64,000 nt of DNA from a virus. Positions 1,943 through 59,740 of this stretch are shown in pieces; position 1 is the stretch's first letter, and each line of letters begins with the position of its first letter. The notes beneath the pieces are model-generated. The model had not been told where the DNA came from, did not search any database, and saw only the letters and a program-made list of their open reading frames with translations. The stretch spans positions 78,705 to 142,704 of the IMG/VR virus record IMGVR_UViG_3300025009_000054, one strand, 5' to 3'. The position numbers and the translations under genes were made by a program.

Positions 1943-3196
1943 TTATCTTCCTCCAGGGTTTATTGCTCTTTTGATTCTCATAAGCGAGAACCTGTCATAT
2001 CTTATATCGAGATTATCACGATTAAACCGCATACTCTCGACCTTGGCATTATCACACCAGCCACATTCTATCGTAGACGCAGCATAATTACGACCACTAC
2101 TGTATGTGTTGCCATTAGACATATGACTACATGCTATGATATGTGATGCGAATGCTGGTATATCATCATCGGTTCCAGATGCCTTACATATGTTCTGCAT
2201 CATTTTACCCGTATCAACCCCAAGCGACGCTATCACACTATACATTGATTCAATCATGTAGAGAGTTAAATTATACGCTTCGGGATAGATCATTCTCTCA
2301 TTTGCAGAATTTGTTAAATCCCGCTCGTGCCATGTTGGGATGTTCTCCATCGCAACAACCACGTATGATCTGACCATCCTAGCGAGGGAACATATACGTT
2401 CACATAATCCTGGATTTTTACCAGACTTATGTTTCATTGACGACGACCCAGCCGCAGATTCCTTCGACACCTCATATACCTCATCAATTTCCGGACGAGC
2501 GAGGTTTCTTATCTCTGTTGCAATACGCTCTAGGGTGCTAGCTATAAGTGCTAGCTGACATATATACTTAGCATATACCGATCTATCGACGATCTGCGAC
2601 GACGCTGCCGCTGGATATAGTCCCAGTATATAGCACGCTTTCCTCTCGACATCTGGATCGAGTACATTATACGACCCAACTGGTCCAGACATCTTACCAT
2701 AATACTCGTTAGCATTGAGATCATTGATGTGTCTTGTTATATCCCATATCCAGCTAGCCAATTTGCTAGAAAATTTCATTGGTTCTGCCCACTGTCCATG
2801 CGTCCTACCAATAATTATAGCACCAGAATTATCTTTAGCACACTTCTCTATGGCATTTCTAAATTCGACCAGTGAAGACATTATCTGTGTACCACTACGC
2901 ATACACATTAGCGACATCGATGTATCCATAACATCTGATGCCGCTAGTCCATAGTATACTGGAACGCATTCTGGATATTTATCCTCTACCCATGAGATGA
3001 AACCTATCATTTCATGAACATATTCATTGATAAATGCGTTGATAACTGGTAAGTCACCACCTAATATCTCTGGTATGCATTTTTTGGTAGACAAGCCATG
3101 CGATTTAATTACAGCATTCATAACCTGTGCCCAGGTTTGGTATTTGGATAGATCACTCCAAATACCATTACATTTGGTATCGTATCGGCTAGTCAT
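1943..3196 (-). CDS. purB: Adenylosuccinate lyase, phage-encoded, altered signature loop
   Basis: Fumarase/aspartase superfamily. It cleaves fumarate from succinylo-purine nucleotides. The 417 residues match bacterial PurB along most of their length: AASDVMDTS (85-93), RTHGQWAEP with the expected catalytic His133, a KMSGPVGSYNVLDP block (168-181), and the flexible signature loop GSSSMKHKSGKNPG (250-263). Canonical PurB has SS(A/S)MPHKRNP here. This copy has Pro to Lys and two extra residues (Ser-Gly). WHERD follows at 289-293. It lies four genes from dNTP and replication functions and in the same operon as the PurZ-like gene at 19.4-20.6 kb. I infer that its substrate may be the succino-2-aminoadenine deoxynucleotide made by PurZ. 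Ordinary adenylosuccinate lyase activity is the alternative. Confidence 0.88.
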   Translation of the reverse strand: MTSRYDTKCNGIWSDLSKYQTWAQVMNAVIKSHGLSTKKCIPEILGGDLPVINAFINEYVHEMIGFISWVEDKYPECVPVYYGLAASDVMDTSMSLMCMRSGTQIMSSLVEFRNAIEKCAKDNSGAIIIGRTHGQWAEPMKFSSKLASWIWDITRHINDLNANEYYGKMSGPVGSYNVLDPDVERKACYILGLYPAAASSQIVDRSVYAKYICQLALIASTLERIATEIRNLARPEIDEVYEVSKESAAGSSSMKHKSGKNPGLCERICSLARMVRSYVVVAMENIPTWHERDLTNSANERMIYPEAYNLTLYMIESMYSVIASLGVDTGKMMQNICKASGTDDDIPAFASHIIACSHMSNGNTYSSGRNYAASTIECGWCDNAKVESMRFNRDNLDIRYDRFSLMRIKRAINPGGR

Positions 3197-4045: not shown

Positions 4046-6742
4046 TTACGCCTCCACACTCTCTTGACTACCAGATGGCATCCCACCACCTAGCGTCGGC
4101 TGACCATCGGATGGCTCAAACCACGAAGTCGTTTCGCCATCCCATACTGCATGGACGATACCTTCTCTGCCACCTCTATTCTTACTAATATTAATTATAT
4201 GTCTGCCATACTTAAATCCAATCTCATTTATGATCTTCTCAGGTTTCTTCTGTGGAATCATGAATGTATCGCAGTCAGCCCATATCTTCTTCGATCCACC
4301 AACATGCTCGGCACCTATCGGATTAAATTCTCTCTTTTGATCCATCATGCCAATAGCTGATGCCGATAACTGTGCGGCACACACAGCAGCTATATCTAAA
4401 TTTCCTGCCATATTTTTAATACCGGTGGATACATCTCTATACTCTGCCCATAGTTCACCTGAGGAATGCGACTCGCTTCCGAGTAGCTGTATGTAATCTA
4501 TAAAGACGGCAGATATATCGTATTTCAGTTTATACAAATGGGTGATAGCTGAAACAGCCTGAATTGATGCACCGTACTTTGTTTCAATAAATATGGGCAT
4601 TTGGCTTATGGCATATGCAGCATCTTTAACCATATCGAGTTCTAACTGAGTTAGATACCCGTACTGCATGGCGTTTATGGTCACACGCTGTCCAAACATT
4701 ATCCATATGAGCATTGAGTATAACCTAGTCATAACGTCACCATCTTCCATCTCCATGTTGACGAAGAGGACAGGTGCACCCTGTAATGCCATGACAAGTG
4801 CTATCTTTAGCATAAGCGCACTCTTGCCTTGTCCAGGCAATGCTCCTATGACGATATACTTCTGTTTCCTGATACCGCCAAGTGTAAGCGATAATGCTGG
4901 GAATTGTGGTCTAAGGTCAAATCCTGGTAACGTGCCTGGATTTGCCACCTGGTTTATGATGAACCTCGTAGTCCTATCGACCAGAGCAATCCTATTGTGT
5001 TCTCCATCACCATCAGATGACCCTCTAACAGCGATGGCAACTACGTCACCGCTTATCTTAGATACTATTTCATCAGATGATATCGACGCGTCAATACACA
5101 TCGACATTGTACCAGTCATTTTTTCATATAGGGTACGTCTCTTATACCTATCGATAATTATATCTAAGCACGACTGCCAATCCTCATACGACGCACTAAA
5201 TACAGCATCGACATTCGTTTGAGATACCAAATTGCCTTTACCAGACGCAACTATATTAGAGTGTACGACATGGGCAGTAGGTACTCCGGCCTTGGCACGT
5301 TCTTCTACGATCGCGCTAAATATGAATTTATTTGAGAATACATAGAAGCAGTCCTCTGTCAGCGACGATACACACTGTGCATATATCTGCTCATTACCAG
5401 CCATAGCCGATAATATTTTATTTTCGGACGTCGCATCAGATAATACTGACGTATCATATATTCCAGACGATACGCATGCAGTAATTGTTTGCTGATCGAT
5501 TCCTACGGCATCAGATATGCATTTACACGCTATTGCTTTGTTAAGTGGACTCAATGTATGGACTCTAGAGCGTACCTTGTTTATGAGCATATGTACATCA
5601 AGCACGTTGTCTACTACTGTATCAAGCATAGACTGTTCTATATAGTATTGAGCAAAATGCGTTGCATTGTTGAGCTTATCATCAATTGACGCAATACCAT
5701 GAGTATTTATGACGTCATCTGGGTCTAGTCCTGGTGGCAATGTTACGATATCTAATATCATGCCATCATCTATACTAAGCTGTGATACTAAATTATATAG
5801 ACCTTTTCTGCCACCAGCATCACCATCCCACATTAGCGAAATTCTAGATGCGCCATATTGTTTAGCAGTCATAACCTGTTCTGGCGATAGGTTGACGTTC
5901 ATAACTCCAACTGTAGATAGCCTATTACATGAATGCATGCGCATCACATCGAAAAATCCCTCTACAGCAATGAGCCGACCACTCTCTCTTATATGCTTTC
6001 GAGCTCTATGCATACCATATAACGGTGATGCAATCGGGTATACAGGAGAATTCCTACTGGTACCAGCCCATTTATCCTTTGATGGCGTCATAGCTCTACC
6101 ACGAAAGAATACTATATCACCCTCAGCATCATGTATCGGGAATATCAACCTCCCACCGAATAGATTATCGTTTGTGAGCTCTAACCTATCAATGGTAATA
6201 TCATCAACACCAGCACTACGCATGGCTACGATAAGGTCATGGGCATGCTCCGTATATCCTAAATTGAAGTCGTCCTGTGTCTGAGACGGAATCTGCCTCA
6301 CATCAGTAACATACTCAACTATCTTTTTATTCTGAAGGTACATCTGGTGCATTACGTCAGCGGCCATACCATTGATTCCGCACAAATAGTCATGCCACTG
6401 TTCCTCTATGGTAGGCTCTCTAAGATAATCTTTGATATCTATATTAAAATCGACACTAAATTGTTCAACAGCTTCTATGAACGTCAATCCTAGATATGCT
6501 TGAATAAATCGTATAACATCTTTTCCATGCTTATCGGAACAGCTACCGAAGCATTTCCATATTTGTTTACGATCGCTTACTACGAAACTAGGGTCATTAT
6601 CAGCGTGGAATGGACAACAGCACCTACTTACGGATCCTGCCTTCTCTAAGACTATATATCTACCAATTGCATCTGATAGTGGAACAGCATTTGATATGAA
6701 CTGGATTAGACCTTGTGGGTCACGAACTCTTAATTTTCCCAT
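4046..6742 (-). CDS. Fused primase-helicase (T7 gp4-like architecture)
   Basis: Makes RNA primers and unwinds DNA at the phage replication fork. The 898 residues hold an N-terminal CHC2-type zinc finger (CPFH at 43-46, Cys64, Cys68), then a DnaG-like TOPRIM core (LIAVEGFFDV about 257-266 with Glu261; MWDGDAG with Asp306 and Asp308). After a long linker comes a RecA-fold DnaB-family helicase domain with Walker A GALPGQGKS (633-641), NMEMED (662-667) and the Walker B-like VFIDYIQLL near 760. The C-terminal SKNRGG segment matches the DnaB arginine-finger region. Starts at ATG after AGGGG. Its last codons overlap the ribosome site of the next gene. Confidence 0.93.
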   Translation of the reverse strand: MGKLRVRDPQGLIQFISNAVPLSDAIGRYIVLEKAGSVSRCCCPFHADNDPSFVVSDRKQIWKCFGSCSDKHGKDVIRFIQAYLGLTFIEAVEQFSVDFNIDIKDYLREPTIEEQWHDYLCGINGMAADVMHQMYLQNKKIVEYVTDVRQIPSQTQDDFNLGYTEHAHDLIVAMRSAGVDDITIDRLELTNDNLFGGRLIFPIHDAEGDIVFFRGRAMTPSKDKWAGTSRNSPVYPIASPLYGMHRARKHIRESGRLIAVEGFFDVMRMHSCNRLSTVGVMNVNLSPEQVMTAKQYGASRISLMWDGDAGGRKGLYNLVSQLSIDDGMILDIVTLPPGLDPDDVINTHGIASIDDKLNNATHFAQYYIEQSMLDTVVDNVLDVHMLINKVRSRVHTLSPLNKAIACKCISDAVGIDQQTITACVSSGIYDTSVLSDATSENKILSAMAGNEQIYAQCVSSLTEDCFYVFSNKFIFSAIVEERAKAGVPTAHVVHSNIVASGKGNLVSQTNVDAVFSASYEDWQSCLDIIIDRYKRRTLYEKMTGTMSMCIDASISSDEIVSKISGDVVAIAVRGSSDGDGEHNRIALVDRTTRFIINQVANPGTLPGFDLRPQFPALSLTLGGIRKQKYIVIGALPGQGKSALMLKIALVMALQGAPVLFVNMEMEDGDVMTRLYSMLIWIMFGQRVTINAMQYGYLTQLELDMVKDAAYAISQMPIFIETKYGASIQAVSAITHLYKLKYDISAVFIDYIQLLGSESHSSGELWAEYRDVSTGIKNMAGNLDIAAVCAAQLSASAIGMMDQKREFNPIGAEHVGGSKKIWADCDTFMIPQKKPEKIINEIGFKYGRHIINISKNRGGREGIVHAVWDGETTSWFEPSDGQPTLGGGMPSGSQESVEA

Positions 6743-8730: not shown

Positions 8731-9444
8731 CTAAGCAGATTTGATCATGCGGCCAATGATCATCGGTTGTCCGACTGAAGGTACGACAACTTCCCACACA
8801 TATTCGGCTCCAATAAGATTGAGCTTCTTTACTCCAAACTTGATATTACCGTTCATATCTACTTTTGAATGCTTAGTTCTATGCACATACGACGAATCAC
8901 ACTGAGAGTGTGAACCTACGATAGTAACACTATTTTTATAAAACATAGCCCACGCTATCTGTCCAATATCAAATACTTTATTCGTGACCATTACCGGTAT
9001 TGTTAATACTCCATCATTACCGGCTACACTATGCCATCCATCATTATGCCTCTTCGTAGTATTTGGTCCTCTACTGCGTCTAGGCTTCTTGGGTGCTATC
9101 GAATTCGGAATGGTCGCTGGTGATGAGCAATACATCGCAAGTCCTAAAGACGGGTTCTCTTCTACTATCATTCCACCTGGATGATCAGCCACACTCTTGC
9201 CAATCGGATGATATACAAGTACCCCAATGTCAGTACCAGACATATTACCCATAGTCTGCAAATAATCTTTGGTCATCTCGCCATTATTCCACATAGATAT
9301 AACAATCGGTCTAACATCACTATGTGGAGCCCATAGCCCATCACCACGTACCTTTATAGTAACGTCGTAGGCGGTAAACACTATTCCGCTTGAAACATAG
9401 TCAACTACTGTATCCCTTATTGCAACCTCTAATGATGCGTTCAT
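8731..9444 (-). CDS. Hypothetical protein with basic central linker
   Basis: 237 residues from ATG at 9444, selected because GGAGGG lies 8 bases upstream and the previous gene stops at 9446. The middle holds a basic segment (APKKPRRSRGPNTTKRHND) of the kind that contacts nucleic acid, between two mixed alpha/beta halves. It directly follows the PARP-like gene and could be co-expressed with it, but I recognise no domain. Confidence 0.65.
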   Translation of the reverse strand: MNASLEVAIRDTVVDYVSSGIVFTAYDVTIKVRGDGLWAPHSDVRPIVISMWNNGEMTKDYLQTMGNMSGTDIGVLVYHPIGKSVADHPGGMIVEENPSLGLAMYCSSPATIPNSIAPKKPRRSRGPNTTKRHNDGWHSVAGNDGVLTIPVMVTNKVFDIGQIAWAMFYKNSVTIVGSHSQCDSSYVHRTKHSKVDMNGNIKFGVKKLNLIGAEYVWEVVVPSVGQPMIIGRMIKSA

Positions 9445-9445
9445 A

Positions 9446-10717
9446 TTATCTCCCTCCATCTGTGAACTCAATCAGGTATTTTGGATTTATCTGATCAGTT
9501 CTATACACAATCCACTCATTGTTCATTACTCCAGACTTATTTGCTTTCGCAAAAGTGGAGTCATGCCCACTCTTTGGTAGATTCTCGCCATAGTTATTTG
9601 GTACGTAATATTTGCCCATTGCCACATCACAAAGGAACATATAGCATGAGCTACTTCTAGTACCAGACCAATACCCATCTGAGTAATTCAACGCTTTGGT
9701 TGATTGGTCTGATGTATATATGCCATTGCCAAACATACGCCCAGTACAATATGGAGCATTACTTGGTGGGATAATAAAACCTTTTTGCATAATACTTAAT
9801 AGATTTCCAGACCTAGTACCATGCCATCCATCCCATATATTAGGTAGATTTGCTCCATAATTGGCAAAAGCATTCGACATGGATGCTATCTCAACCTTAA
9901 ATACCTTATGTGGACGAAGTCTAGAGCTTGAATGCATACTTTGTTGGGTAGATACATAGAGCTTTGTTATACGATCGATAACACTCTTGTCAGTAACTAA
10001 ACTTAATGATACCTCAAATAATTTTGGCTCTTCATTAGGTTCATTACCACTAGATACTACCATCTGAACAGATGACTCAAGAGAATCTAAAATACTATTT
10101 TGCTTTTGAATAGCATCAATATTTGGATATAGGTACTTAAGATTGGGTTTCCTCATACCTATATTCTGTGGGATAAGTTGTAGGTACTCGTTAACAGAAT
10201 CTATGAACGAAGGTGATTCATAATCATTGACTATCACATATTTACTTATACTATCAAGTAATAATCTGGCACATGAAATAGCCTCTGCCGTAACTACTCC
10301 AAGCGGTGTAGAATATGTGCCACGGCTTTCATCGTACTGTATTGTGGTATTGGAGAGGATGTTATGTCGATTTACACTGACAAGATACGAAACCAAATCT
10401 CTGGTTTCGTTATTATCTGTTTGTATCTGTCCTGTTGCCACTTGCGCCAGTCTTCCTGACGTAACTGTTTTACCGCTCTCCGTAGAGGTACCCCGTATAG
10501 TTTGCGTCGCCTTGTAACCATGGGATCCCTTCTCAATGACCTTTTGGTCATAGAAACCTTTGCCATGGCCAATGACTTTTCTTTGGCCACTATATCCGAC
10601 ACGGCCCCAGTGAGTTTCTACTGCACCGTCGTCATATAAATAAATAGACCAAAACTTATTATTGTTTTCACTAACATCTGCCTTATTAAAATGACGCTCT
10701 TCCACTATATTTGCCAT
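9446..10717 (-). CDS. PARP1-like poly(ADP-ribose) polymerase (WGR + regulatory + ART domains)
   Basis: Predicted NAD+-dependent ADP-ribosyltransferase. The 423 residues follow the order of eukaryotic DNA-dependent PARPs. A WGR domain comes first (KFWSIYLYDDG...HWGRVGYSGQ, WGR at 37-39). A helical regulatory domain follows (TPLG about 137-140, LIPQNIGMRKPNL about 181-193). The catalytic ART domain is last, with the full H-Y-E triad: His299 in GWHGTRS, Tyr334 in GNGIYTSD and Glu401 in NNEWIVY. The last residues, NPKYLIEF, match the family end. No zinc fingers or BRCT domain are present. ATG start behind CGGAG. The WGR and helical domains of PARP1 couple DNA-end binding to activity, so I infer activation by DNA damage or DNA ends. 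Target unknown: host defence, host enzymes, or phage DNA ends. Confidence 0.92.
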   Translation of the reverse strand: MANIVEERHFNKADVSENNNKFWSIYLYDDGAVETHWGRVGYSGQRKVIGHGKGFYDQKVIEKGSHGYKATQTIRGTSTESGKTVTSGRLAQVATGQIQTDNNETRDLVSYLVSVNRHNILSNTTIQYDESRGTYSTPLGVVTAEAISCARLLLDSISKYVIVNDYESPSFIDSVNEYLQLIPQNIGMRKPNLKYLYPNIDAIQKQNSILDSLESSVQMVVSSGNEPNEEPKLFEVSLSLVTDKSVIDRITKLYVSTQQSMHSSSRLRPHKVFKVEIASMSNAFANYGANLPNIWDGWHGTRSGNLLSIMQKGFIIPPSNAPYCTGRMFGNGIYTSDQSTKALNYSDGYWSGTRSSSCYMFLCDVAMGKYYVPNNYGENLPKSGHDSTFAKANKSGVMNNEWIVYRTDQINPKYLIEFTDGGR

Positions 10718-10814: not shown

Positions 10815-11204
10815 CTATGTCAAGCTTGACTCTAAAGCATGCTTATCATCCTGAGCAGATGTAGAGCCAGCTCCCATACCACCCTTGTCTGGATCACTAG
10901 CCCAATCACGCTTAAATACCTCTGTTGATACTTCGGTAATCGCGTCCTGCAAATCTATGCCCTCGGCACTACAATACCCAGCTAGAAATACTATAACATC
11001 AGCAACAGCGTCTCTAGCCTTTGATAGATATGTCTCTCTTGTCATGCCACGTATACCCTGAACACTCTTTAGATGCGCGTGTGCTAATTCACCTATTTCC
11101 TCTACGGCTCCAAGTAGACAGTGATACGGCACTTGCTCACCAAAATTCCTATCAGACCACTCCTTTTGATTTCTCTGTAATTCTCGAAATGTTAGCTCAC
11201 TCAC
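10815..11204 (-). CDS. MazG-like nucleoside triphosphate pyrophosphohydrolase
   Basis: 129 residues from GTG at 11204. It shows the all-alpha NTP-PPase pattern: EEIGELAHAHLK (metal-binding EExxE), a short linker, then DAVADVIVFLAGYC and a VFKRDW end. The last about 25 residues are a disordered tail. The family hydrolyses dNTPs to dNMPs and PPi. In Z-genome phages a MazG-like enzyme (MazZ) turns dGTP into dGMP, the PurZ substrate. Because this phage also encodes a PurZ-like protein, that role is the leading hypothesis. General dNTP clean-up or (p)ppGpp hydrolysis are alternatives. It overlaps the helicase stop region and sits upstream of the PARP gene. Confidence 0.82.
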   Translation of the reverse strand: MSELTFRELQRNQKEWSDRNFGEQVPYHCLLGAVEEIGELAHAHLKSVQGIRGMTRETYLSKARDAVADVIVFLAGYCSAEGIDLQDAITEVSTEVFKRDWASDPDKGGMGAGSTSAQDDKHALESSLT

Positions 11205-14122
11205 AGTGATAGTACCTCATACCCTTCATCAGTCGCGTATTTTACCCTATTTCTATGATGCTTCGATAGATACCTACAATTCATATCGGCAATGTCAAGA
11301 ACAAGACCATTCTTCTTATCAGGTCTATTTGGATCTTTCCTCATGACACGACCAACACGCTGTATATACATGCCACGCTCAGCACCATCAACCACCACAA
11401 TTAAGTCTAAACTAGGAACATCAACACCCTCATTAATGAGTGTAGTTATCATGCATTTAAGCTCACGGCTCTTAAGTTTAGTAAATGCACGTTTTCTATC
11501 GCCTTTACTATCACTACTAATAAGCAAGATAGCACCAGGTATTAGGGGTAGTAAATTTTTACCATGCTCCACTTTACTAATAGCTATAGCTACAGTAGAT
11601 CCACTATCCATAGCACGTATTACACTATCGGCTATCATTTGGTTACGTTCTGCATTGTCTATAATGAGTTGTCTATAGACATCGTTATATGATATGTCAA
11701 TTTCCTTACGACATTTTGGACAATAACCTTTGTGGCCTACGAACGATGCTGAGAATTCGATTACATTACCACATTTGCCCTTACCGACCTTAGTTGGGCA
11801 TATAACCTTAATAATATTTTTAGAATGATCAAATTTCTCGCACCTGATAATGGGCGGGACCAATATTCCAGCATCTATAATCTCTTTTGGACGTGCCATA
11901 TACAGCATCCTCGGAAGAGCCGCTTCAATAAGCAGGTCTGTGTCATCGTCACGGTAAGGCGTCGCTGAGTTATGTACTAATACCCCATTAGCCACAAACG
12001 ATGGATGCCCATCCATTTCTAAATCATATACATAGTCGATACTATCAAATACTGATAGTCCAGTATCCTTGATTTGCACCTCATTAAATGAGTAGTTACT
12101 ATGGCAATATTTTGATCTTGTACCGCTACGACCATTATTCTTACCATTCATAGCATTAGTAGACCATGTTACTATATATGACGGATGTTTACCGATAATT
12201 TTCCTACCATACACAGTTCCACCATCACGTGGTCCGGATTTTGGTGATGTAGATCCCGAAACACCTATACTACGAAGCAAACACAGAATATCCATAACTA
12301 ACTTATAGGATGTCGTGGTGTAATAACACCTTTTGCGATTTCTCGATCTTTCTGCACTATGACCATCAGAATCTATTAATCCATTTAATAATTGACGTCT
12401 AGACTGATATGACCATGAAAAAAGACACTCACCTGGTATATGCTTCGTTAAATGGTTTACCTTACCAAAATACGATTGGAATATATCGACTAATATAGCA
12501 CTATTTATCTCTACCTGGGTAGATCCATCTCGTTTATCAAGTGTTAGATTACAATGTAGCCATGACATACTATTCACTTTACTGATAAATGCATCAACAT
12601 CTTCACTACATATCGAAAAACACAATTGATTTGTATCTATCCAACCATCTCCAATAAAATAGCCCATAATATATGCTAAATCTACAGTTGGAATGTACGC
12701 ATCCACCCACCCACCATGTGAATTACCAGAATAGATCCTAGTTGGTTTTGGCAATATATTTTTATGTTGTTTATATATACTTAACGACAAATAGTGTCCA
12801 TACTGACCACGATTCCTAAACCTAAACCATGCTTTTGGGTCCAAATTTAATGCTCGACGATTAGTACTCGTCAAATCAACACATACTAGGGTTCCTGAGT
12901 CATCAGCTCTATCTGACGCGTCGATCATATCAATACCACGATCACACCAATCTATTCCATCATCTCCAATTAATACATCACCAATAATCAAATCCTGGGC
13001 TGATGCTTCAGACACTATAACCTGATGTTTGGTATCTCCAATATTTCTACCACCAGGTACTATCTTATATATGGAATGATCATTCGTCGTATTTAGCCAA
13101 GTTCCGTATACACGTACACCTGGTAGCTCACTAGATGCCGGTACATGCCTAATAAAATTTTTGATAGGTTTCCATGCAAACTTATCACCAGTCCAACCAC
13201 GTGACATTATGCCCTGACCAGATACATCTATAATCTCATATCCATCAGATGTTATATGTGATGCCATGTCAGTACAAGAAGCAATATAGAAAGCATCTGC
13301 GATTTTACAATGTTGTCCAGTCCCAAAAGGACCACCAATAAGCTCTACATACGATTCGCTATGAACTGATAAACCTACGCGTACGTCGGCCTCGGAAAAG
13401 GCTCCGAAGGTATCGAAAACTGTCTGGGCTCGTAGGTGGTGCATTTCATCGCAAAACACGACTCTCGTGTTTTTAATCATATTCTTAAGGTCATTTGTCC
13501 GATAATCGTCCTTTGAACTCATGATCTTACCAATAGTCTGCAATGTCGCAACAGTCACCACATTAGGTTCAAATACAGTATCACCAACTATTCCAATACC
13601 GGTACTCGGTAAATACTCCTTAAATGATTCATATGTCTGATATAAGAGCTCTATATTATGTACCAGAAACACTGATGGAACACCCATTTCAGCTATGGCG
13701 TGAGCGGCAAGTAGTGTCTTACCAGACCCAGTAGGGAGACATATCACGCCACATTTCTTCTCAAGTATTGCTTGACACGCGGCCTTCTGATAATCTCTAG
13801 GATCTCTATTGGGTGTCCAATCGAACTTATCCTCATACCCCTTCTGAATACGATGGTCAATAATATCAATCTTAATATCTGGTCTAGCCTTAGATATAGC
13901 CCATTTTACTCTATCGACAAGTCCTGTTGGAAATTCATATGTGTCAGAGTTAAAAACTGATACAATGCCCGACATATTCTTTTGTGCCCATTTAGACCTA
14001 TGTTTAAACCCAGGATCCTTATATGAGCACACTGAGCACGCATGGCCTACAGCATTTATTGGGTCGTAATCGCACTCTTCAATAATTATTTTACTATACG
14101 CAGACCTTACATCTATTTTCAT
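11201..14122 (-). CDS. Superfamily 2 DNA helicase (UvsW/XPB-like) interrupted by an intein
   Basis: ATP-dependent DNA translocase. I start it at ATG 14122, which overlaps the preceding stop as TAATG. An upstream in-frame ATG at 14137 has only weak ribosome signals. Counting from 14122: N-terminal domain with a CSVCSYK cysteine pair, motif I CLPTGSGKT (about 128-136), motif II DEMHH (225-229), motif III SATPYRDD, then a C-terminal RecA lobe with a CPTKVGKGKCGNV...CPKC zinc-ribbon insertion, and the final QRVGRVMRKDP motif VI. A 467-residue intein lies between GL and the Ser of motif III. After splicing, a helicase of about 505 residues results. Roles of relatives include branch migration, replication restart and recombination. 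Confidence 0.92.
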   Translation of the reverse strand: MKIDVRSAYSKIIIEECDYDPINAVGHACSVCSYKDPGFKHRSKWAQKNMSGIVSVFNSDTYEFPTGLVDRVKWAISKARPDIKIDIIDHRIQKGYEDKFDWTPNRDPRDYQKAACQAILEKKCGVICLPTGSGKTLLAAHAIAEMGVPSVFLVHNIELLYQTYESFKEYLPSTGIGIVGDTVFEPNVVTVATLQTIGKIMSSKDDYRTNDLKNMIKNTRVVFCDEMHHLRAQTVFDTFGAFSEADVRVGLSVHSESYVELIGGPFGTGQHCKIADAFYIASCTDMASHITSDGYEIIDVSGQGIMSRGWTGDKFAWKPIKNFIRHVPASSELPGVRVYGTWLNTTNDHSIYKIVPGGRNIGDTKHQVIVSEASAQDLIIGDVLIGDDGIDWCDRGIDMIDASDRADDSGTLVCVDLTSTNRRALNLDPKAWFRFRNRGQYGHYLSLSIYKQHKNILPKPTRIYSGNSHGGWVDAYIPTVDLAYIMGYFIGDGWIDTNQLCFSICSEDVDAFISKVNSMSWLHCNLTLDKRDGSTQVEINSAILVDIFQSYFGKVNHLTKHIPGECLFSWSYQSRRQLLNGLIDSDGHSAERSRNRKRCYYTTTSYKLVMDILCLLRSIGVSGSTSPKSGPRDGGTVYGRKIIGKHPSYIVTWSTNAMNGKNNGRSGTRSKYCHSNYSFNEVQIKDTGLSVFDSIDYVYDLEMDGHPSFVANGVLVHNSATPYRDDDTDLLIEAALPRMLYMARPKEIIDAGILVPPIIRCEKFDHSKNIIKVICPTKVGKGKCGNVIEFSASFVGHKGYCPKCRKEIDISYNDVYRQLIIDNAERNQMIADSVIRAMDSGSTVAIAISKVEHGKNLLPLIPGAILLISSDSKGDRKRAFTKLKSRELKCMITTLINEGVDVPSLDLIVVVDGAERGMYIQRVGRVMRKDPNRPDKKNGLVLDIADMNCRYLSKHHRNRVKYATDEGYEVLSL
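11969..13369 (-). mobile_element. Intein with LAGLIDADG homing endonuclease in helicase motif III
   Basis: Protein-splicing element of 467 residues. It starts with Ser (SVHSESYVELIGG) and ends with VLVHN before the Ser of SATPYRDD, so N-terminal Ser, penultimate His, terminal Asn and +1 Ser are all in place. The centre has two LAGLIDADG helices, LAYIMGYFIGDGWID and LLNGLIDSDGHSA, each with its acidic residue. Both splicing and homing activities look intact. It disrupts the most conserved motif of the helicase, the usual choice of inteins. Confidence 0.92.
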
Positions 14123-14469
14123 TACTGGTTTCCCCATTTCTTAGAACCAGTCATTGATAGCTCTGGTTCGCGTAAACTACCGCGCCTCGACGTAACATCG
14201 TATAAAAACTTTATGGAGTGCATTACTTCTCTTAAGTAATCACGTTTTGTAATTTGATCTTTACTACCATGATCACGTACCGAATGATCAAGTCTAGACC
14301 ACAAACCAACAACATATGAGTAATATGATGGTAACACCATAAACATTTTATCTACTTCATCACCAGGCACTACTGAGGGTACAGACATTCTATGATATGG
14401 TTCTATCGATTCAAATAGTTCCTCATAGGACACGCTCTCAACATTGTACACTGATATTTCTATTGACAT
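14122..14469 (-). CDS. Hypothetical acidic protein
   Basis: 115 residues from ATG 14469, where GGAGG lies 8 bases upstream. Its stop overlaps the helicase start (TAATG). The N-terminal half is acidic (VESVSYEELFESIEP), the C-terminal half helical and basic, with DYLREVMHSIKFLYDV. No domain recognised. Tight coupling suggests co-expression with the helicase. Confidence 0.65.
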   Translation of the reverse strand: MSIEISVYNVESVSYEELFESIEPYHRMSVPSVVPGDEVDKMFMVLPSYYSYVVGLWSRLDHSVRDHGSKDQITKRDYLREVMHSIKFLYDVTSRRGSLREPELSMTGSKKWGNQ

Positions 14470-15854: not shown

Positions 15855-16505
15855 CTACTCAGATTTATCTGTAACATATCCAGCGCGGTTTCTATGAACG
15901 CCCTCTGAACAGTTACAGTTCCAACAAAGCACTCTTAATCCTAAATTATCTGGGTATCCATTATTGCGCAACCATCGATAAAACTTCTCACCACCACGCT
16001 TACCATTAATATTAGAGTGTATAATACCATCTTTATATGAGTGGTCTATTGTTAAAAACAATAGATTAGTCTCATGACAGACTACGCATTCGCTTCCATA
16101 ATGAGATATGGCGTCGTACTTCAAACGACGTGAGTATTTCGTATAGTAATTGCTAGACTCAACTATGCCATTATGAGGACATTGCCCACTATTAATAGAT
16201 CTCCCAGAGTTACAATTCCAACACAATAATCTATAACAAGTTGGATATCCATCACGGACTATCTGACGATACAAAGCATGAGTATTTCCAGCTTCCCTAA
16301 GATGTGCTTTACCACCACCATCAATATGATCTAAAGTTAGGAAATCAATATTACTGATACCACAACATGAACATTTACCACCATAATGCTCAATAATCAA
16401 TATGCGGGCTTTCTCTCTGTATCTACGTTTTATAGATTTAATGACATCTGGATGTGACTGGCGATACTCAGCATTCATAACTTTACGCTGTTCTTTACTT
16501 ACCAT
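15855..16505 (-). CDS. Tandem HNH-type endonuclease-like protein
   Basis: 216 residues. Two homologous zinc-bearing HNH-like modules stand in tandem. The first (about 35-120) has CSCCG, LTLDHIDGGG, a long REAGNTHALYRQI helix and LLCWNCN. The second (about 130-205) has CVVCH, LTIDHSYKDG and VLCWNCN. The second lacks part of the first's DHIDGG loop and may be inactive. Such proteins are often mobile homing nucleases or packaging and repair nucleases. The ATG start overlaps the end of the upstream nuclease gene and has no clear Shine-Dalgarno sequence, suggesting translational coupling. Confidence 0.78.
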   Translation of the reverse strand: MVSKEQRKVMNAEYRQSHPDVIKSIKRRYREKARILIIEHYGGKCSCCGISNIDFLTLDHIDGGGKAHLREAGNTHALYRQIVRDGYPTCYRLLCWNCNSGRSINSGQCPHNGIVESSNYYTKYSRRLKYDAISHYGSECVVCHETNLLFLTIDHSYKDGIIHSNINGKRGGEKFYRWLRNNGYPDNLGLRVLCWNCNCSEGVHRNRAGYVTDKSE

Positions 16506-19389: not shown

Positions 19390-20592
19390 TCAGTACTTGC
19401 TTTGATAGGCCGGTTCGAAGTCCCTCTTATATCCAGGCTTCGATGATGATTCAGGCGATAGTATGCCGGATTTGAATGCAAACTCTCTAAGTTTACCTGG
19501 ATGCATAGTGATTATATGTTCTGGGCGTGGACCCGTACTTAGCCACCCAATAGAATCAAATAAATCATATTCTGCAGCGAATTTGGCCACCCATTCTTTA
19601 CTAACCTGGGACAGACCTTCCCAAGCATTTTTACCATAGTCAATCGCGGCGATATAATCTATGAACGTGACCATTATCGATCCTGGTCGATTAATAGCAA
19701 GGGCTTTTCTAAACAATTTAGGACTAATCTCACCAACTCTTCTAACTCTCTTCGTAACAGTCGTCATTTCAATAACAGGCTTAGACGATCCACTACGAGT
19801 CTGAATTTCTTCCCACGTGAGTTCCTGAACATTCTCGTCTTCATACCCAAATGGTCCACTGTTGCCAGCAACCCTAATTGGATATGTTCTCATAACACCA
19901 TATATACTACGTACGGACATTGGTGATAGTCCAGCTTCTGCAAGCCAGTTTGCTGCGTTTGTATCTCTGGACGTAGTTTTTGGATATAAACCATGGTACA
20001 TCGATAAAGCCATTCCCTGAGTTCCTTCGAGCATAACGGGAAATCCATTGTTTACCATATTATTGAGTATCATGCATGTATCGCCGATGTAGGGTTTAAG
20101 ATAACTCACATCTTTGGCTAAGGTCACATCACCCTGCCTTTTAATCCTATCAATGAGAGCCGCACCACACCCTTCACGTGTACTACCAATAGCTTCGAAC
20201 AGATCTTTACTACCATCTTTTCCATGCTCAGCATCAATATGTTTCTGCTCAATCAGAATGGCATTTGGATCAATGACGAGTCTACCATCATCCCATACCT
20301 TTTCTTCCTTCAGCCAACCGATTTCCCGATCTAGTACGGTTGGAATAATCATAGCACCAGCACCAATTACGAGCTGTGCTTTTGGTGCCGCTATAGACCC
20401 GCATGGAATGGTTTGAAAAGCAAGCTTCTTCTTTCCATCTTTACTATAGACATAATGGCCAGCATTCGGCGATCCTGTACGCACTAAAGCACCATTATTA
20501 TATTGCCCAGCAATATGTTCACACAATTTTCCTTTTGCTTCAGAACCAAATGCGAGTCCGACGACGATATCTACGCACCTATTAGTGATCAT
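19390..20592 (-). CDS. purZ: PurZ-like succino-aminodeoxyadenylate synthetase (PurA family)
   Basis: 400 residues. In the known pathway PurZ joins dGMP and aspartate to form N6-succino-2-amino-dAMP, the precursor of the Z base that replaces adenine. The fold is clearly adenylosuccinate synthetase: NAGH (49-52), IGSTREGCGAA, EGTQGMALSMYHG, TSRDTNAANW, and TKRVRRVGE near residue 290. The first loop reads GLAFGSEAKGK, so Ser17 replaces the catalytic Asp of PurA GDEGKGK. That is the hallmark substitution reported for PurZ. At about 400 residues it is shorter than bacterial PurA (about 430). ATG start with GGAGG nine bases upstream. It lies in the same operon as RecA, the MazG-like enzyme and PurB. 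An unusual PurA is the alternative. Confidence 0.88.
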   Translation of the reverse strand: MITNRCVDIVVGLAFGSEAKGKLCEHIAGQYNNGALVRTGSPNAGHYVYSKDGKKKLAFQTIPCGSIAAPKAQLVIGAGAMIIPTVLDREIGWLKEEKVWDDGRLVIDPNAILIEQKHIDAEHGKDGSKDLFEAIGSTREGCGAALIDRIKRQGDVTLAKDVSYLKPYIGDTCMILNNMVNNGFPVMLEGTQGMALSMYHGLYPKTTSRDTNAANWLAEAGLSPMSVRSIYGVMRTYPIRVAGNSGPFGYEDENVQELTWEEIQTRSGSSKPVIEMTTVTKRVRRVGEISPKLFRKALAINRPGSIMVTFIDYIAAIDYGKNAWEGLSQVSKEWVAKFAAEYDLFDSIGWLSTGPRPEHIITMHPGKLREFAFKSGILSPESSSKPGYKRDFEPAYQSKY

Positions 20593-51867: not shown

Positions 51868-54531
51868 TTACATCGTATTGGGTAGATTCACATTACTAGT
51901 AGCCTCAGGCGGAAGACCTTCTGGCATACTTTCTATTGGCATCTCACCCATGTCCTCCGGACCAAATCCAGCCTCAGGTAGTCCCATACCACCATCTGAT
52001 GGTAGCATTGGCATATCAGGTCCTGGTGGTACGGGACCACCACCAGGAATTTTCATCGCTTTATCAAATACAGTACCCTTTTCTTTTTCAATACCCTCAA
52101 TAGCAACCTTAGGATTAATGCCAACAGATTTGAGTACCGTTGATGCAGGAATAAGTCCTTTGTCATATAATGCTTGCATTAGCTGTATTTTCTGCAAGTC
52201 ATCCCTCAAGTTTGCCTTAGACCAATGAATTTCAGGGTACCAAGGCACTCTATCTCTGCCACTAACGCGGTAACGACCCAACAATTCACTATCTACAGGT
52301 TTATATACGTTATGTATCCTAAGGATAGGACCAAAGAAATGGACTTTTAACCATTGCTCGACCTTCTTACGTAGGAATAGGTATCTATTGATTAAGACAT
52401 CCATAGCTACACTTGTTGCTGAGAATCCTGGTCCTGTTCCATCAATAAACCCTCTAGACATCAACATTCCGGCAAGGATGTTCTTTTCTATATTATCAAA
52501 TTCTGCATTCAGAGGTAGAATACGTCCTGAGTTACCGTGTATCGCCAACTTGCCATTCCTACGAGTTACAAATAGACCATTAGGAACTGTTACGCACCAT
52601 ACCTTACCATTATATTTAGTAATATTAATATCACCACTATTAACATGTGGATATTTTCCTATATCATTTTTAGTGGTCCAATATACCGCATAACAGTCGC
52701 GACGATTATCAAACCCACCTTTCTGTTCAGGTGTATATGGTTTAATAGTAGGAGCGTATCCACACTTCCACGCCAATTCCTGAATATCATCAGCTAATTT
52801 CACTGAAGTCGTCCAATATGTCCAGTAACCGGACCCACGATGATCACACCCATCACCATCACAGACAGCATCAAGAAATATCTGTATATAGCGCGGCGGT
52901 AGGTTTTTGATCCATTGTGGTACGCATTTTTTGTGCCACAGATGTCCAAAATCATCAGCAAGTTTTCTTGTTAAATCTGTATCACTACAGATTAGTCGCA
53001 CACATCTATTACCAACTTTATTGGGAGACGATACGTACTCAAAATGCGGTATTTTGGTATCAGACATTAAAGTGCGCATGTCATCTAAGACGCGAGTATT
53101 TTCATTTTGCGATATATAGAATCTGCCATCAGTGTCCGATCTAAAGTACGACGACCCCTCAGACGCAAAATATCCACCGAGTCTTAGATATTGACCAATT
53201 GTGATACTAAGGTTACCTATATCTATAGTATCACAATCAAGTTTAGTACCATGCCACTCTGCACCGACGCGGAACTTATAATCACCGCGCAACTCATCAG
53301 CACGTATTATTTCGTAGTCTGCATACTTGCGGACCCCATTTGCTCTTTTACGACGACTAACTAACATTCTATGATTCGGTGTCACCATAGTATCTACTTT
53401 ATTATCAGTGGAAAAATGGTACATATCGCCATCGTAGTCGTATATGTGTATAGCTTCAGGATTATGATATTCAATTATTCCAGTACCTTGATTTAGAGTC
53501 GCTATTTCATCATTAAGTGATAGCTCATTATAATACTTAAAGCCATCCCTAGTGAGACATTCAGTTTGATCATCATGGCAGGCACCCTCCCACTGAATGC
53601 GGAGTGCGTGATGCCACACTATTGCTTGATTTGGTTGTGTCCATGATGCCTCAAGTGCATCTTTAAATGAGTTAAGCTCTTCCTGATCTGCAGGCTCACC
53701 AGCTTCACCAATCATGTAGAACTCTTTTGGTGTTACGTGGCGATCTGCAATAGCGTATTGAGCTTCTCTCAATTTCTCCCTGTACATTAATAATTTGAAA
53801 CACGCGAGAAGTAATGGAGTTCCACGTTCATTATGAACATTGCCCATACTCTTAACGTGCGATGCACATATTGGGTCGAGGGGCATCGGTTCGTCTCGCA
53901 TGACGTAATATATCACATCTTCTGGCATATTACGATATATTTCGCCAGTGTTGGGATCATTAGGACCATTCGCTACAATACGTTTAGTAATAGGGTCTGG
54001 CAGTTTATTAATCCTTTTCGATGCAAGACCATGTGCCATTGGTAGCGAGAATACATCTACATAATCTGGATCTAAACATATGAATTTGTCCCACATTGTA
54101 GGATTGTCTGGATCGTCCAGTATGCCAAATGGGAAAAATTCGCCAACTGTCCAGTATTCAAGCACAGCATCCATTAGAAAATCGAATATTTCTGCCCTAT
54201 CAATCATTTCCTGGCATAATGCTTGTATAGCCGGATCTTCGTGTTCTACATATATATCTGATAACGGAAATTCAGTATGTAGAGTAAGAGCAGCTCTAAC
54301 AATTGGCTCTGAATCAAAGAAATATCTGCACCATGCATTTATCTTCCTTCGATCTTTTGGCACCTCCATAGTACTCATTTCCCAAAATGGGTTGAAATAC
54401 TGTTGGGTCATAAGGTCTACAGATCCGCCAGCGCTGCGTTTCATATTATTACGTGCGCCATCACTCATTGGAATGCCATTTAAGGCATTCGTGAACTCAT
54501 TATTCAGATTGGAGGTGATTAACCTACCCAT
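51868..54531 (-). CDS. Portal protein interrupted by an intein
   Basis: 887 residues before splicing, ATG with GGAGG close upstream. Portal dodecamers form the DNA gate of the head. The N-terminal part (FNPFWEMSTMEVPKDRRKINAWCRYFF...EPIVRAALTLHTEFPL), the central KLLMYREKLREAQYAIADRH helix, and the C-terminal VEQWLKVHFFGPI...RVPWYPEIHW block suit large-phage portals. The Met/Pro/Gly-rich end is disordered. A 350-residue intein interrupts it after EGA. The spliced protein would have about 537 residues. Place at the head of the capsid module supports the assignment. Confidence 0.82.
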   Translation of the reverse strand: MGRLITSNLNNEFTNALNGIPMSDGARNNMKRSAGGSVDLMTQQYFNPFWEMSTMEVPKDRRKINAWCRYFFDSEPIVRAALTLHTEFPLSDIYVEHEDPAIQALCQEMIDRAEIFDFLMDAVLEYWTVGEFFPFGILDDPDNPTMWDKFICLDPDYVDVFSLPMAHGLASKRINKLPDPITKRIVANGPNDPNTGEIYRNMPEDVIYYVMRDEPMPLDPICASHVKSMGNVHNERGTPLLLACFKLLMYREKLREAQYAIADRHVTPKEFYMIGEAGEPADQEELNSFKDALEASWTQPNQAIVWHHALRIQWEGACHDDQTECLTRDGFKYYNELSLNDEIATLNQGTGIIEYHNPEAIHIYDYDGDMYHFSTDNKVDTMVTPNHRMLVSRRKRANGVRKYADYEIIRADELRGDYKFRVGAEWHGTKLDCDTIDIGNLSITIGQYLRLGGYFASEGSSYFRSDTDGRFYISQNENTRVLDDMRTLMSDTKIPHFEYVSSPNKVGNRCVRLICSDTDLTRKLADDFGHLWHKKCVPQWIKNLPPRYIQIFLDAVCDGDGCDHRGSGYWTYWTTSVKLADDIQELAWKCGYAPTIKPYTPEQKGGFDNRRDCYAVYWTTKNDIGKYPHVNSGDINITKYNGKVWCVTVPNGLFVTRRNGKLAIHGNSGRILPLNAEFDNIEKNILAGMLMSRGFIDGTGPGFSATSVAMDVLINRYLFLRKKVEQWLKVHFFGPILRIHNVYKPVDSELLGRYRVSGRDRVPWYPEIHWSKANLRDDLQKIQLMQALYDKGLIPASTVLKSVGINPKVAIEGIEKEKGTVFDKAMKIPGGGPVPPGPDMPMLPSDGGMGLPEAGFGPEDMGEMPIESMPEGLPPEATSNVNLPNTM
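52531..53580 (-). mobile_element. Intein with LAGLIDADG-type endonuclease in the portal gene
   Basis: 350 residues starting at Cys318 (CHDDQTECLTRDGFKYYNEL) and ending LAIHGN before Ser668 (SGRILPLN). Block A, a TPNHRMLV block B (His for the N-splice), and terminal Asn with downstream Ser are present. Endonuclease helices are QYLRLGGYFASEGS and IQIFLDAVCDGDG. The penultimate residue is Gly with His one before, a slight variation. Confidence 0.88.
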
Positions 54532-57996: not shown

Positions 57997-59172
57997 CTAT
58001 AGTATATCTCGTTCAGGTCTAACAGCAACACCTACCGCAAATTGAGGGATACCGTCTTTAGTAAGGTCTTGATATCTCACCGTAAGCCACTTACCGACAT
58101 AGTTATCGGAGTGTGCGCGGAAATCGTGCCATATTCTTTGTCTTTCGGTGAGTTCACCCTCAGGATTCACGGTAAATGTGACGCCCGATGTAGTCATGCA
58201 GACGTACATGGCACACTCGGCGTGACTTCCAGTACCGTTCGTCACATCGATTATCCTAAACTCACCATCTTTAAAGTCCTTAAGTTTCTGGAGCTCTGCC
58301 ACACGATGGCCGAATTTATATTGCCCATCATATGACCGAATGATAGTACCCTCGAATCCCCACTTGGTAAACCGTGAGTGATACATCATGACGTCAGCTT
58401 CATCTTGACAGAGGTATGTTGGTACACGTCGAATACTACCTGGTGCTACAATACTGGCAAACATGTTATCGAGCCGTATATTACGTTGATAAAATGGATC
58501 ATTTTCATCCATAGTATCAAATATCCAGTACTGTAGGTTACTACTAGCGTACTCACTATCGTCAGGGTAGTACTTACTGATTGCGTGAGACGTATCCTGC
58601 AATAGTCTAAACTTTGGTATTGGGTCATTCTCTGTACCGCGAACCGTCAATAATAATTCACCATCGGTAGGAGCACCACCAAGTATATGTGCTTTCATCG
58701 GTATATGCTGTACAACCTCTGGTATGTGTGGTAGACCAGTCCTTGTCCACCAATCATCACCATCAGTACCAGCTCGTTCACCGTTCAGCTTAGGTTGTGC
58801 CCAACATGGGTATTTTACACGATGTTTTGCATCGGTAAACTTGAGAGCCTTCATAGCTAGCGGTTTACCGGAATATACTTCGCCTTCACCAACGTAGCTC
58901 TCATCACGTTTCTTTTTCATACGTGAGTTCATTTCAGATAATGCCTGATCATGCGGTGTTGTCTCATTAGCCTTACCAATATTCTTTGGTATCGCCATTT
59001 TAGGTATACTCGATACCATCTTCGAATATCCAACACCACCAGAAAGTTCTGACCAAGTAGTTGTGGTCACGTAACAGTTCTCACCATCAGTAACCACCTG
59101 ACCCATCCAATATTGATTAAGACCACTCACGTTCTTCTTATGCAGGATTGGTGTTTCATTCAGGATCTGCAT
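57997..59172 (-). CDS. ATP-dependent DNA ligase with WGR-like N-terminal domain
   Basis: 391 residues from ATG 59172 (GGAGG upstream). It seals nicks in DNA through a lysyl-AMP intermediate. Nucleotidyltransferase motifs are AQPKLNGERAG (motif I, active Lys about 128), TDGELLL (motif III), WGFEGTIIRS (motif IV), and LQKLKDFKDGEFRIID (motif V). An OB-fold region with VGKWLTVRYQDLTKDGIP follows. The first about 65 residues (YWMGQVVTDGENCYVTTTTWSELSGGVGYSK) look like a WGR-type domain, which is also present in this phage's PARP. Overlaps the ndk gene by 17 bases. Confidence 0.88.
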   Translation of the reverse strand: MQILNETPILHKKNVSGLNQYWMGQVVTDGENCYVTTTTWSELSGGVGYSKMVSSIPKMAIPKNIGKANETTPHDQALSEMNSRMKKKRDESYVGEGEVYSGKPLAMKALKFTDAKHRVKYPCWAQPKLNGERAGTDGDDWWTRTGLPHIPEVVQHIPMKAHILGGAPTDGELLLTVRGTENDPIPKFRLLQDTSHAISKYYPDDSEYASSNLQYWIFDTMDENDPFYQRNIRLDNMFASIVAPGSIRRVPTYLCQDEADVMMYHSRFTKWGFEGTIIRSYDGQYKFGHRVAELQKLKDFKDGEFRIIDVTNGTGSHAECAMYVCMTTSGVTFTVNPEGELTERQRIWHDFRAHSDNYVGKWLTVRYQDLTKDGIPQFAVGVAVRPERDIL

Positions 59173-59740
59173 CACTACCTCCAATATCCTCTGTACCAAC
59201 AGGCACGTTGATCTCCTGCTCGTCCACTTCTAATTCATCGGAGAACATTCTGAGCATTTGCCCAAGTCTTATTACAGCATCAAGGTGTGGAAACCATATA
59301 TTTAATTCACGATCAGCCGATTCAACAGAATCTGATGCGTGAATTAAATTTTTTGGCAACTCGCCACCAAAATCCCCACGAATTGTACCCTTTTCCGCTT
59401 TAGACGGATCCTTGTTACCTATCATATCGCGTACCACCTGTACGCAATTCTCGCCCTCGACTGCCAATAGGAGTAATGCACCGGACATCATATGATCTAT
59501 GTTACGCTGGTAGAAATCTTTACCCTCATGCTCAGCGTAGAGTTCTTTCAGAGCTTTTAGTATTTTGCCATTTTCATCGTGTGTGGGGTCTATCATGGCA
59601 TAGTGCAGACACCCTATACCAGCATTTTTGAATCGATCCATAATTTGATCTGCAGTACATGGATCGATTCCAGCCTTGATATCTTCATTACTTCTCTCTA
59701 ACGCGTCCGGTTTTAGTATTATTAACGTTCTCTGAATCAC
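59156..59740 (-). CDS. ndk: Nucleoside diphosphate kinase
   Basis: 194 residues from GTG 59740 (AAGGAG upstream). Moves the gamma-phosphate between NTPs and (d)NDPs. The active-site block KNLIHASDSVESADRELNIWF carries phospho-acceptor His134. TLIILKPDALER is the standard start. A C-terminal tail of about 35 acidic residues is extra. Rare in phages. In this genome it would supply dNTPs, and possibly dZTP from dZDP, at the end of the PurZ pathway. Clustered with dCMP deaminase and ligase. Confidence 0.92.
   Translation of the reverse strand: MIQRTLIILKPDALERSNEDIKAGIDPCTADQIMDRFKNAGIGCLHYAMIDPTHDENGKILKALKELYAEHEGKDFYQRNIDHMMSGALLLLAVEGENCVQVVRDMIGNKDPSKAEKGTIRGDFGGELPKNLIHASDSVESADRELNIWFPHLDAVIRLGQMLRMFSDELEVDEQEINVPVGTEDIGGSDADPE

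What the first reader, a model, noticed from the sequence alone, without database searches (positions are those of the whole stretch)
9446..10717. Complete PARP1-like enzyme (WGR, regulatory helical domain, H-Y-E ART) in a phage
All three functional domains are recognisable, including TPLG and LIPQ...GMKKP-type blocks of the regulatory domain and the intact triad His299, Tyr334, Glu401. Known phage ADP-ribosyltransferases such as T4 Alt and ModA are of another type. A DNA-dependent PARP in a phage could sense DNA ends, consume NAD+, or modify host defence proteins.
Basis: partly seen in the sequence, partly recalled or inferred. Interest (0 to 1): 0.85.

Follow-up and report, generated by a model that had tools for sequence, protein, structure and literature searches.

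The report
PARP-type enzyme in a phage
This phage carries a complete, apparently intact relative of the human DNA-break sensor PARP; such phage genes were already known from sequence, and the new clue is that they tend to sit beside a conserved DNA-binding gene or beside nucleic-acid ligases, which suggests a job at broken DNA rather than a toxin.

Summary
On the minus strand, 9446-10717 encodes 423 aa with WGR, PARP regulatory (HD) and H-Y-E ADP-ribosyltransferase (ART) domains. AlphaFold2 models it well (pLDDT 89.5), and it superposes over its whole length on human PARP1 bound to a DNA break (Z 27.9, 375 residues). H299, Y334, E401 and the WGR Gly-Arg are conserved in all 62 phage and 62 genome sequences aligned.

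The kind is not new. PARPs were reported in phages in 2014, 2021 and 2022, and a Klebsiella phage record already annotates all three domains. It lacks PARP1's zinc fingers and BRCT, so it is a PARP2/3-sized enzyme.

What I add is context. The next gene (ATG at 9444, just past the PARP stop) encodes a predicted winged-helix plus MraZ/AbrB-like protein. It has relatives in 16 other phage PARP loci, in 13 of them directly downstream. Nucleic-acid ligases are enriched within 1.5 kb of phage PARP genes. The window gene lies among RecA/UvsX, uracil-DNA glycosylase, helicase and primase genes.

Best reading: a DNA-end-activated ADP-ribosyltransferase of the phage's own replication and repair module. 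Activity, chain length and targets are untested.

The parts
9446..10717 (-). PARP gene, 423 aa, start ATG at 10717, stop TAA at 9448-9446
10490..10696 (-). WGR domain, about residues 8-76; W37-G38-R39 match PARP1 W589-G590-R591
   Evidence: Pfam WGR 3.3e-8; second search 36.5 bits; G38 and R39 invariant in 62 phage and 62 genome sequences; residue map
10049..10453 (-). Helical regulatory domain (HD / PARP_reg), about residues 89-223, with TPLG and LIPQNIGMRKP blocks; core L139, L154, L210, L213 match PARP1 L698, L713, L765, L768
   Evidence: Pfam PARP_reg 1.1e-4, below cut-off; AF2 helices 89-97, 103-123, 144-162, 169-181, 193-196, 200-223; residue map
9464..9976 (-). ART catalytic domain, residues 248-418; triad H299, Y334, E401; also M328, K341, Y345; A342 stands where PARP1 has S904
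   Evidence: Pfam PARP 2.6e-26
8731..9444 (-). Partner gene, 237 aa from ATG at 9444 (1 bp after the PARP stop, with a likely ribosome-binding site GGAGGGAG inside the PARP end): predicted winged helix (1-82) and MraZ/AbrB-like double domain (135-237)
   Evidence: sequence; AF2 and fold search; MazE/AbrB Pfam hits in relatives; conserved next to PARP
57997..59199 (-). The phage's ATP-dependent DNA ligase, 47 kb away; its relatives lie next to PARP in other phages; N-terminal region possibly WGR-like
   Evidence: Pfam DNA_ligase_A_M 6.2e-9 and OB 3.8e-9; hhalign probability 63% to the PARP WGR profile

Best explanation
The gene encodes an active, DNA-break-activated ADP-ribosyltransferase of the PARP1/2/3 clade that serves the phage's own DNA replication and repair module. 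The WGR domain docks on DNA ends or nicks; this relaxes the HD, which otherwise blocks NAD+ binding; the H-Y-E ART domain then transfers ADP-ribose, possibly as chains, to itself and to proteins or DNA ends at the break. The modification would hold or release repair factors such as ligase. The downstream winged-helix/MraZ-like protein is probably a DNA-bound partner: a substrate, a positioning factor or the regulator of the pair. Shown here: domains, predicted fold, conserved residues, purifying selection in relatives, conserved gene neighbours. Inferred from characterised PARPs: DNA dependence and allostery. Not shown: activity, chain length, targets, phenotype.
For: Full-length structural match to PARP1 on a DNA break. 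All key WGR, HD-core and active-site residues conserved except S904; H299 and E401 lie outside the patterns used to find relatives, so their conservation is not circular. dN/dS 0.06-0.33 in six pairs of phage relatives. In the window: family-4 uracil-DNA glycosylase, DnaG-DnaB fusion, XPB/RadD-like helicase and UvsX/RecA within about 8 kb. Ligases in phage PARP flanks: 20 of 31 within 1.5 kb, expected 6.6, naive p 2e-7, with families confirmed by Pfam on representatives. Orders such as Rnl2-PARP-partner-DNA ligase (L020, L023), DNA ligase-Macro-PARP (L055) and PARP-ligase-partner (L008). Partner immediately downstream in 13 of 16 other phage loci, naive p 1e-7 for proximity, with only two locus pairs over 60% PARP identity. 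In 50,697 phage records the only partner found lies beside a PARP. A macrodomain or ADP-ribosylglycohydrolase neighbour in some. A bacterial relative, Herpetosiphon PARP, was active with activated DNA and inhibited by a PARP1 inhibitor, as cited in PMC5966428.
Against: No activity data. The window's own ligase is 47 kb from the PARP gene. Repair genes cluster in phage genomes anyway, and related loci are not independent: counted by lineage the ligase excess is much weaker. No macrodomain, NADAR, ADP-ribosylglycohydrolase or Nudix gene was found in the 142.7-kb record, so reversal would rely on the host; the PARG search was uninformative, and the record may be incomplete. A342 replaces the nicotinamide-contacting S904. 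PARP3-type enzymes with the same triad make only mono-ADP-ribose (own knowledge).
Confidence: 0.6

Rival explanations
1. [quoted passage not shown]
For: Iyer 2021 and 2022 propose host hijacking for phage ARTs in general. Neighbours of some relatives are RNA ligases and Nudix hydrolases, which fit conflict over RNA and NAD+.
Against: About 44% of phage ARTs lie in contexts suggesting packaging into the head, whereas this gene sits in the replication and repair cluster. WGR and HD are retained, which a free protein modifier does not need.
Confidence: 0.2
2. Counter-defence: the enzyme competes at DNA ends or for NAD+, or modifies host nucleases, to blunt DNA-end-sensing or NAD+-dependent defence systems.
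For: Phage NAD+ biology is strongly tied to defence (PMC9503650). RNA ligases beside relatives can repair damage done by defence nucleases.
Against: No PADLOC match for the PARP and no recognised anti-defence neighbour. A PARP would deplete NAD+, which helps NADase defences rather than countering them.
Confidence: 0.1
3. Toxin-antitoxin-like or superinfection-exclusion pair: the PARP is a DNA-triggered NAD+ consumer restrained by the downstream AbrB/MazE-like protein.
For: The downstream gene has MazE/AbrB-like domains in relatives, is tightly coupled and conserved.
Against: The partner is large with a winged helix and fits a DNA-binding regulator. Many phage PARPs lack it and have ligase or macrodomain neighbours instead. 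Structurally the C-terminus matches MraZ, a transcription factor.
Confidence: 0.07

Closest known systems
Human PARP1/2/3 (clade 1, ARTD1-3)
   Same: WGR-HD-ART order, fold over the whole length (4dqy_C Z 27.9; PARP2 6x0m Z 25.4), H-Y-E triad, WGR Trp-Gly-Arg, HD leucine core.
   Different: No zinc fingers or BRCT and almost nothing before the WGR; S904 replaced by Ala; short acceptor-site loop; about 22-24% identity.
Phage PARPs: Xanthomonas phage XacN1 BBA65562.1, Klebsiella phages 05F01, FBKp34 (QQV91759.1), KP13-16, Stenotrophomonas RAS14/CM1, Cellulophaga phi4:1
   Same: Full-length homologues at 25-36% identity; FBKp34 annotated with WGR, regulatory and catalytic domains.
   Different: Different neighbours: nrdD region in Klebsiella phages, DNA ligase in phi4:1; no winged-helix/MraZ-like partner detected in these records.
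Bacterial WGR-PARPs (Herpetosiphon, C. difficile CD160; PMC5966428)
   Same: WGR-PARP_reg-PARP layout; Herpetosiphon enzyme active with DNA, as cited there. The nearest relatives of the window protein are Armatimonadota genes L067 (54%) and L068 (49%).
   Different: Bacterial genes; in many the PARP_reg is not detected by Pfam.
T4 Alt, ModA, ModB
   Same: Phage NAD+-dependent ADP-ribosyltransferases.
   Different: R-S-E clade, not H-Y-E; act on host RNA polymerase and other host proteins (own knowledge).

Membership tests
Clade 1 PARP (PARP1/2/3 type) | ART domain with H-Y-E triad | tested here: met
   H299, Y334, E401; invariant in 124 aligned proteins including the window's
Clade 1 PARP (PARP1/2/3 type) | WGR domain with Trp/Tyr-Gly-Arg | tested here: met
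Clade 1 PARP (PARP1/2/3 type) | Helical regulatory domain before the ART | tested here: met
   Pfam below cut-off but AF2 helices and full-length alignment to PARP1
Clade 1 PARP (PARP1/2/3 type) | Activity stimulated by DNA ends | not testable with these tools
   needs purified protein
Clade 1 PARP (PARP1/2/3 type) | Makes poly- rather than mono-ADP-ribose | not testable with these tools
   the triad is shared by PARP1/2 (poly) and PARP3 (mono; own knowledge)
PARP1 proper | Zn1-Zn2-Zn3-BRCT upstream of WGR | tested here: not met
   WGR match starts at residue 8 of 423
Phage PARP family PHROG_23333 | Full-length profile match | tested here: met
   6.5e-56 over residues 17-418
T4 Alt/Mod (R-S-E ARTs) | Match to an Alt or Mod family | tested here: not met
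   Pfam gives only PARP, WGR and PARP_reg; PHROGs give the PARP family and one large unannotated family (3e-6); H-Y-E residues
Known anti-phage defence protein | PADLOC model match | tested here: not met
   no match at E <= 0.01
MraZ/AbrB family (partner gene) | Swapped-hairpin AbrB-like domain | tested here: inconclusive
   structure match to MraZ Z 7.8, 95-96 residues; Pfam MazE/AbrB hits in relatives, none in the window copy

The most novel reading that the evidence does not exclude
Large phages carry a dedicated ADP-ribosylation module for nucleic-acid breaks: a DNA-end-activated PARP coupled to a winged-helix/MraZ-like DNA-binding partner and, in many lineages, to DNA or RNA ligases and ADP-ribose erasers. 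It would be a prokaryotic-virus counterpart of eukaryotic PARP-directed break repair, with the partner as a new PARP cofactor or substrate.
Probability: 0.3. Interest if true: 0.8.

Novelty: new member of a known kind. Interest (0 to 1): 0.45.

Why it matters
Phage PARPs have been listed for a decade, but I found no experiment on one in the papers searched. This copy is complete, modelled with good confidence, and has a conserved, translationally coupled partner, so DNA-dependent ADP-ribosylation in a phage becomes directly testable with two small proteins. If the module reading holds, PARP-directed break repair also operates in viruses of prokaryotes, and phages become candidate vehicles for moving PARP genes between lineages: the tree mixes phage and bacterial PARPs.

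Tried and rejected
Single-protein scan of viral contigs found nothing; the alignment-based scan found 57 loci. Partner alignment A3 was too diverse to scan with; subset A5 gave 6 contigs: four are PARP-first loci, and the two others both carry a PARP, although one of these contigs was also already a PARP locus (L022). Single-protein partner scans added nothing. Macro, NADAR, ADP-ribosylglycohydrolase and Nudix were searched in the record and not found; the PARG search is uninformative because no control rang. The WGR-like N-terminus of the ligase is only suggestive (hhalign 63%), and the Pfam WGR model finds only the PARP in this record. A 'macrodomain' downstream of the partner in L063 came from an iterated profile and had no Pfam support, so it is not relied on. 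More distant partner hits (L038, L051, L052, L054, L057, L063) come from profile iteration and were left out of the count of 16.

Full report
CHECK. The finding's interval holds one 423-aa ORF, on the minus strand; it is not open on the plus strand. Pfam finds WGR, PARP_reg (weak, below its curated cut-off) and PARP catalytic domains in order, and a phage protein family covers it nearly end to end. The record is a 142.7-kb IMG/VR virus contig with portal, head-protease and UvsX-type recombinase genes.

STRUCTURE. With an alignment of 60 relatives AlphaFold2 gives pLDDT 89.5 and pTM 0.82. Foldseek's best hits are PARP1 and PARP2 bound to DNA breaks; the second aligner superposes residues 1-421 on PARP1 WGR-HD-ART at Z 27.9, rmsd 3.5 A, 375 residues. 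The residue map gives W589/R591 to W37/R39; E688 to D129; L698, L713, L765, L768 to L139, L154, L210, L213; H862, M890, Y896, K903, Y907, E988 to H299, M328, Y334, K341, Y345, E401. S904 is A342 here and in some relatives. The donor-loop block has low confidence (64). There are no zinc fingers and no BRCT, so by layout this is a PARP2/3-sized enzyme, not PARP1 itself.

RELATIVES. Twenty phage records match by tblastn, eleven over at least 80% of the query, all under 60% identity. Scans gave 57 viral and 66 genome loci. The triad, WGR Gly-Arg, K341 and Y345 are invariant in 62 phage and 62 genome sequences. The search patterns covered the NNNK block and the Tyr-to-Lys block, so conservation of Y334 and K341 is partly built in; that of H299, G38-R39 and E401 is not. 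Close pairs have dN/dS 0.06-0.33, so the family is under purifying selection. In a FastTree tree the window protein lies in a mostly phage group (41 phage, 11 genome rows); its nearest relatives are Armatimonadota genes, 54% and 49% identical. L068 sits among what by eye are chromosomal genes (SecD-, RecJ- and branched-chain transporter-like), so the gene has probably moved between bacteria and phages; an Armatimonadota host is a guess.

CONTEXT IN THE WINDOW. From 4 to 18 kb the main ORFs are all on the minus strand: DnaG-DnaB fusion, family-4 uracil-DNA glycosylase, three unknowns, the partner gene, PARP, MazG-like, XPB/RadD-like helicase with an intein, methyltransferase, UvsX/RecA. This is a replication and repair block.

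PARTNER. The PARP stop TAA is followed after one base by ATG (9444) of a 237-aa gene whose likely ribosome-binding site lies in the PARP end. AlphaFold2 (pLDDT 76) gives a confident winged helix at 1-82, a disordered linker and a beta-rich end at 135-237. The end matches MraZ, a double AbrB-type domain, at Z 7.8-7.9 over 95-96 residues, and the start matches Fur/PadR winged helices at Z about 8. These Z values are near the background of such searches, but the AbrB/MazE assignment is supported independently by MazE and AbrB-like Pfam hits in relatives. Sixteen other phage PARP loci have a relative of this gene; in thirteen it is immediately downstream on the same strand within 1.5 kb. Among 50,697 phage records the only one with a detectable partner (LR756511) also has PARP and DNA ligase beside it. 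Of six contigs found partner-first, four were the seeds; the other two both carry a PARP, one about 14 kb away and one about 1.3 kb away in a cluster with an ADP-ribosylglycohydrolase. I found no description of this pair in the papers searched.

LIGASES AND ERASERS. In the flanks of phage PARPs 31 nucleic-acid ligases were found, 20 within 1.5 kb against 6.6 expected from territory. The p-value of 2e-7 is naive: loci are related, about eight lineages carry the close ligases, and phage repair genes cluster anyway. Pfam on representatives confirms ATP-dependent DNA ligases, T4 Rnl1- and Rnl2-type RNA ligases, Nudix, and the macrodomain (L061) of the group in which that gene lies 11-13 bp upstream of PARP. 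The window's own DNA ligase is at 57997-59199, far from PARP. No eraser was found in this record.

MECHANISM. By homology to PARP1/2 the WGR binds DNA ends, the HD gates NAD+ entry and the ART transfers ADP-ribose; Herpetosiphon PARP is reported to be active with DNA (cited in PMC5966428). I commit to a DNA-break-activated ADP-ribosyltransferase in the phage repair module (0.6). Predicted fold, residues and neighbours are shown; DNA dependence, polymer length, targets and the partner's role are inferred.

KNOWN OR NEW. Perina 2014 named PARPs in Cellulophaga phage phi4:1 and Aeromonas phage Aeh1 (PMC4245714). Iyer 2021 listed the XacN1 PARP (PMC7824862; record). Iyer 2022 counts PARPs among the commonest viral ARTs (PMC9503650). 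Klebsiella phage FBKp34 is annotated with all three domains. So this is a new member of a known kind; the partner linkage and ligase association are, as far as I could check, new observations that need independent sampling.

Noticed in passing
window 19390-20592 -, 1943-3196 -, 10815-11204 -: Adenylosuccinate-synthetase-like gene scoring 214.7 bits on PurZ (cut-off 300) and 257.4 on PRK04293 (cut-off 368), plus PurB-like and MazG-like genes: possible base-modification (2-aminoadenine-type) or purine pathway.
   Followed up: partly
window 51868-54531 - and 11201-14137 -: Portal gene whose portal match is split, with matches to thymidylate synthase, PhoH and ribonucleotide reductase families between, and a helicase with an intein C-terminal splicing motif: two likely inteins.
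   Followed up: partly
window 57997-59199 -: ATP-dependent DNA ligase whose N-terminal region, shared by ligases near PARPs in other phages, resembles a WGR domain (hhalign probability 63%); PARP and ligase may share a DNA-end-binding module.
   Followed up: partly
window 4046-6742 -: Primase and replicative helicase fused in one 898-aa protein (DnaG 10-405, DnaB 437-874).
   Followed up: no
window 15855-16505 -: 216-aa protein that by eye contains two HNH-like cysteine-rich repeats, perhaps a homing-type nuclease.
   Followed up: no
L140 1044-6036: Phage contig (436 kb) with a 550-aa PARP, a 199-aa protein (phosphoesterase-like by eye, no Pfam match), the winged-helix/MraZ-like partner and an ADP-ribosylglycohydrolase (2.4e-49) in one cluster.
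   Followed up: partly
L055, L056, L058, L060: Macrodomain gene 11-13 bp upstream of a phage PARP, preceded by an ATP- or NAD-type DNA ligase: a writer-eraser-ligase order.
   Followed up: partly
L067 and L110: The same Armatimonadaceae genome (YX3bin16) has two PARPs, 54% and 27% identical to the window protein; the second has a partner-type gene downstream.
   Followed up: partly
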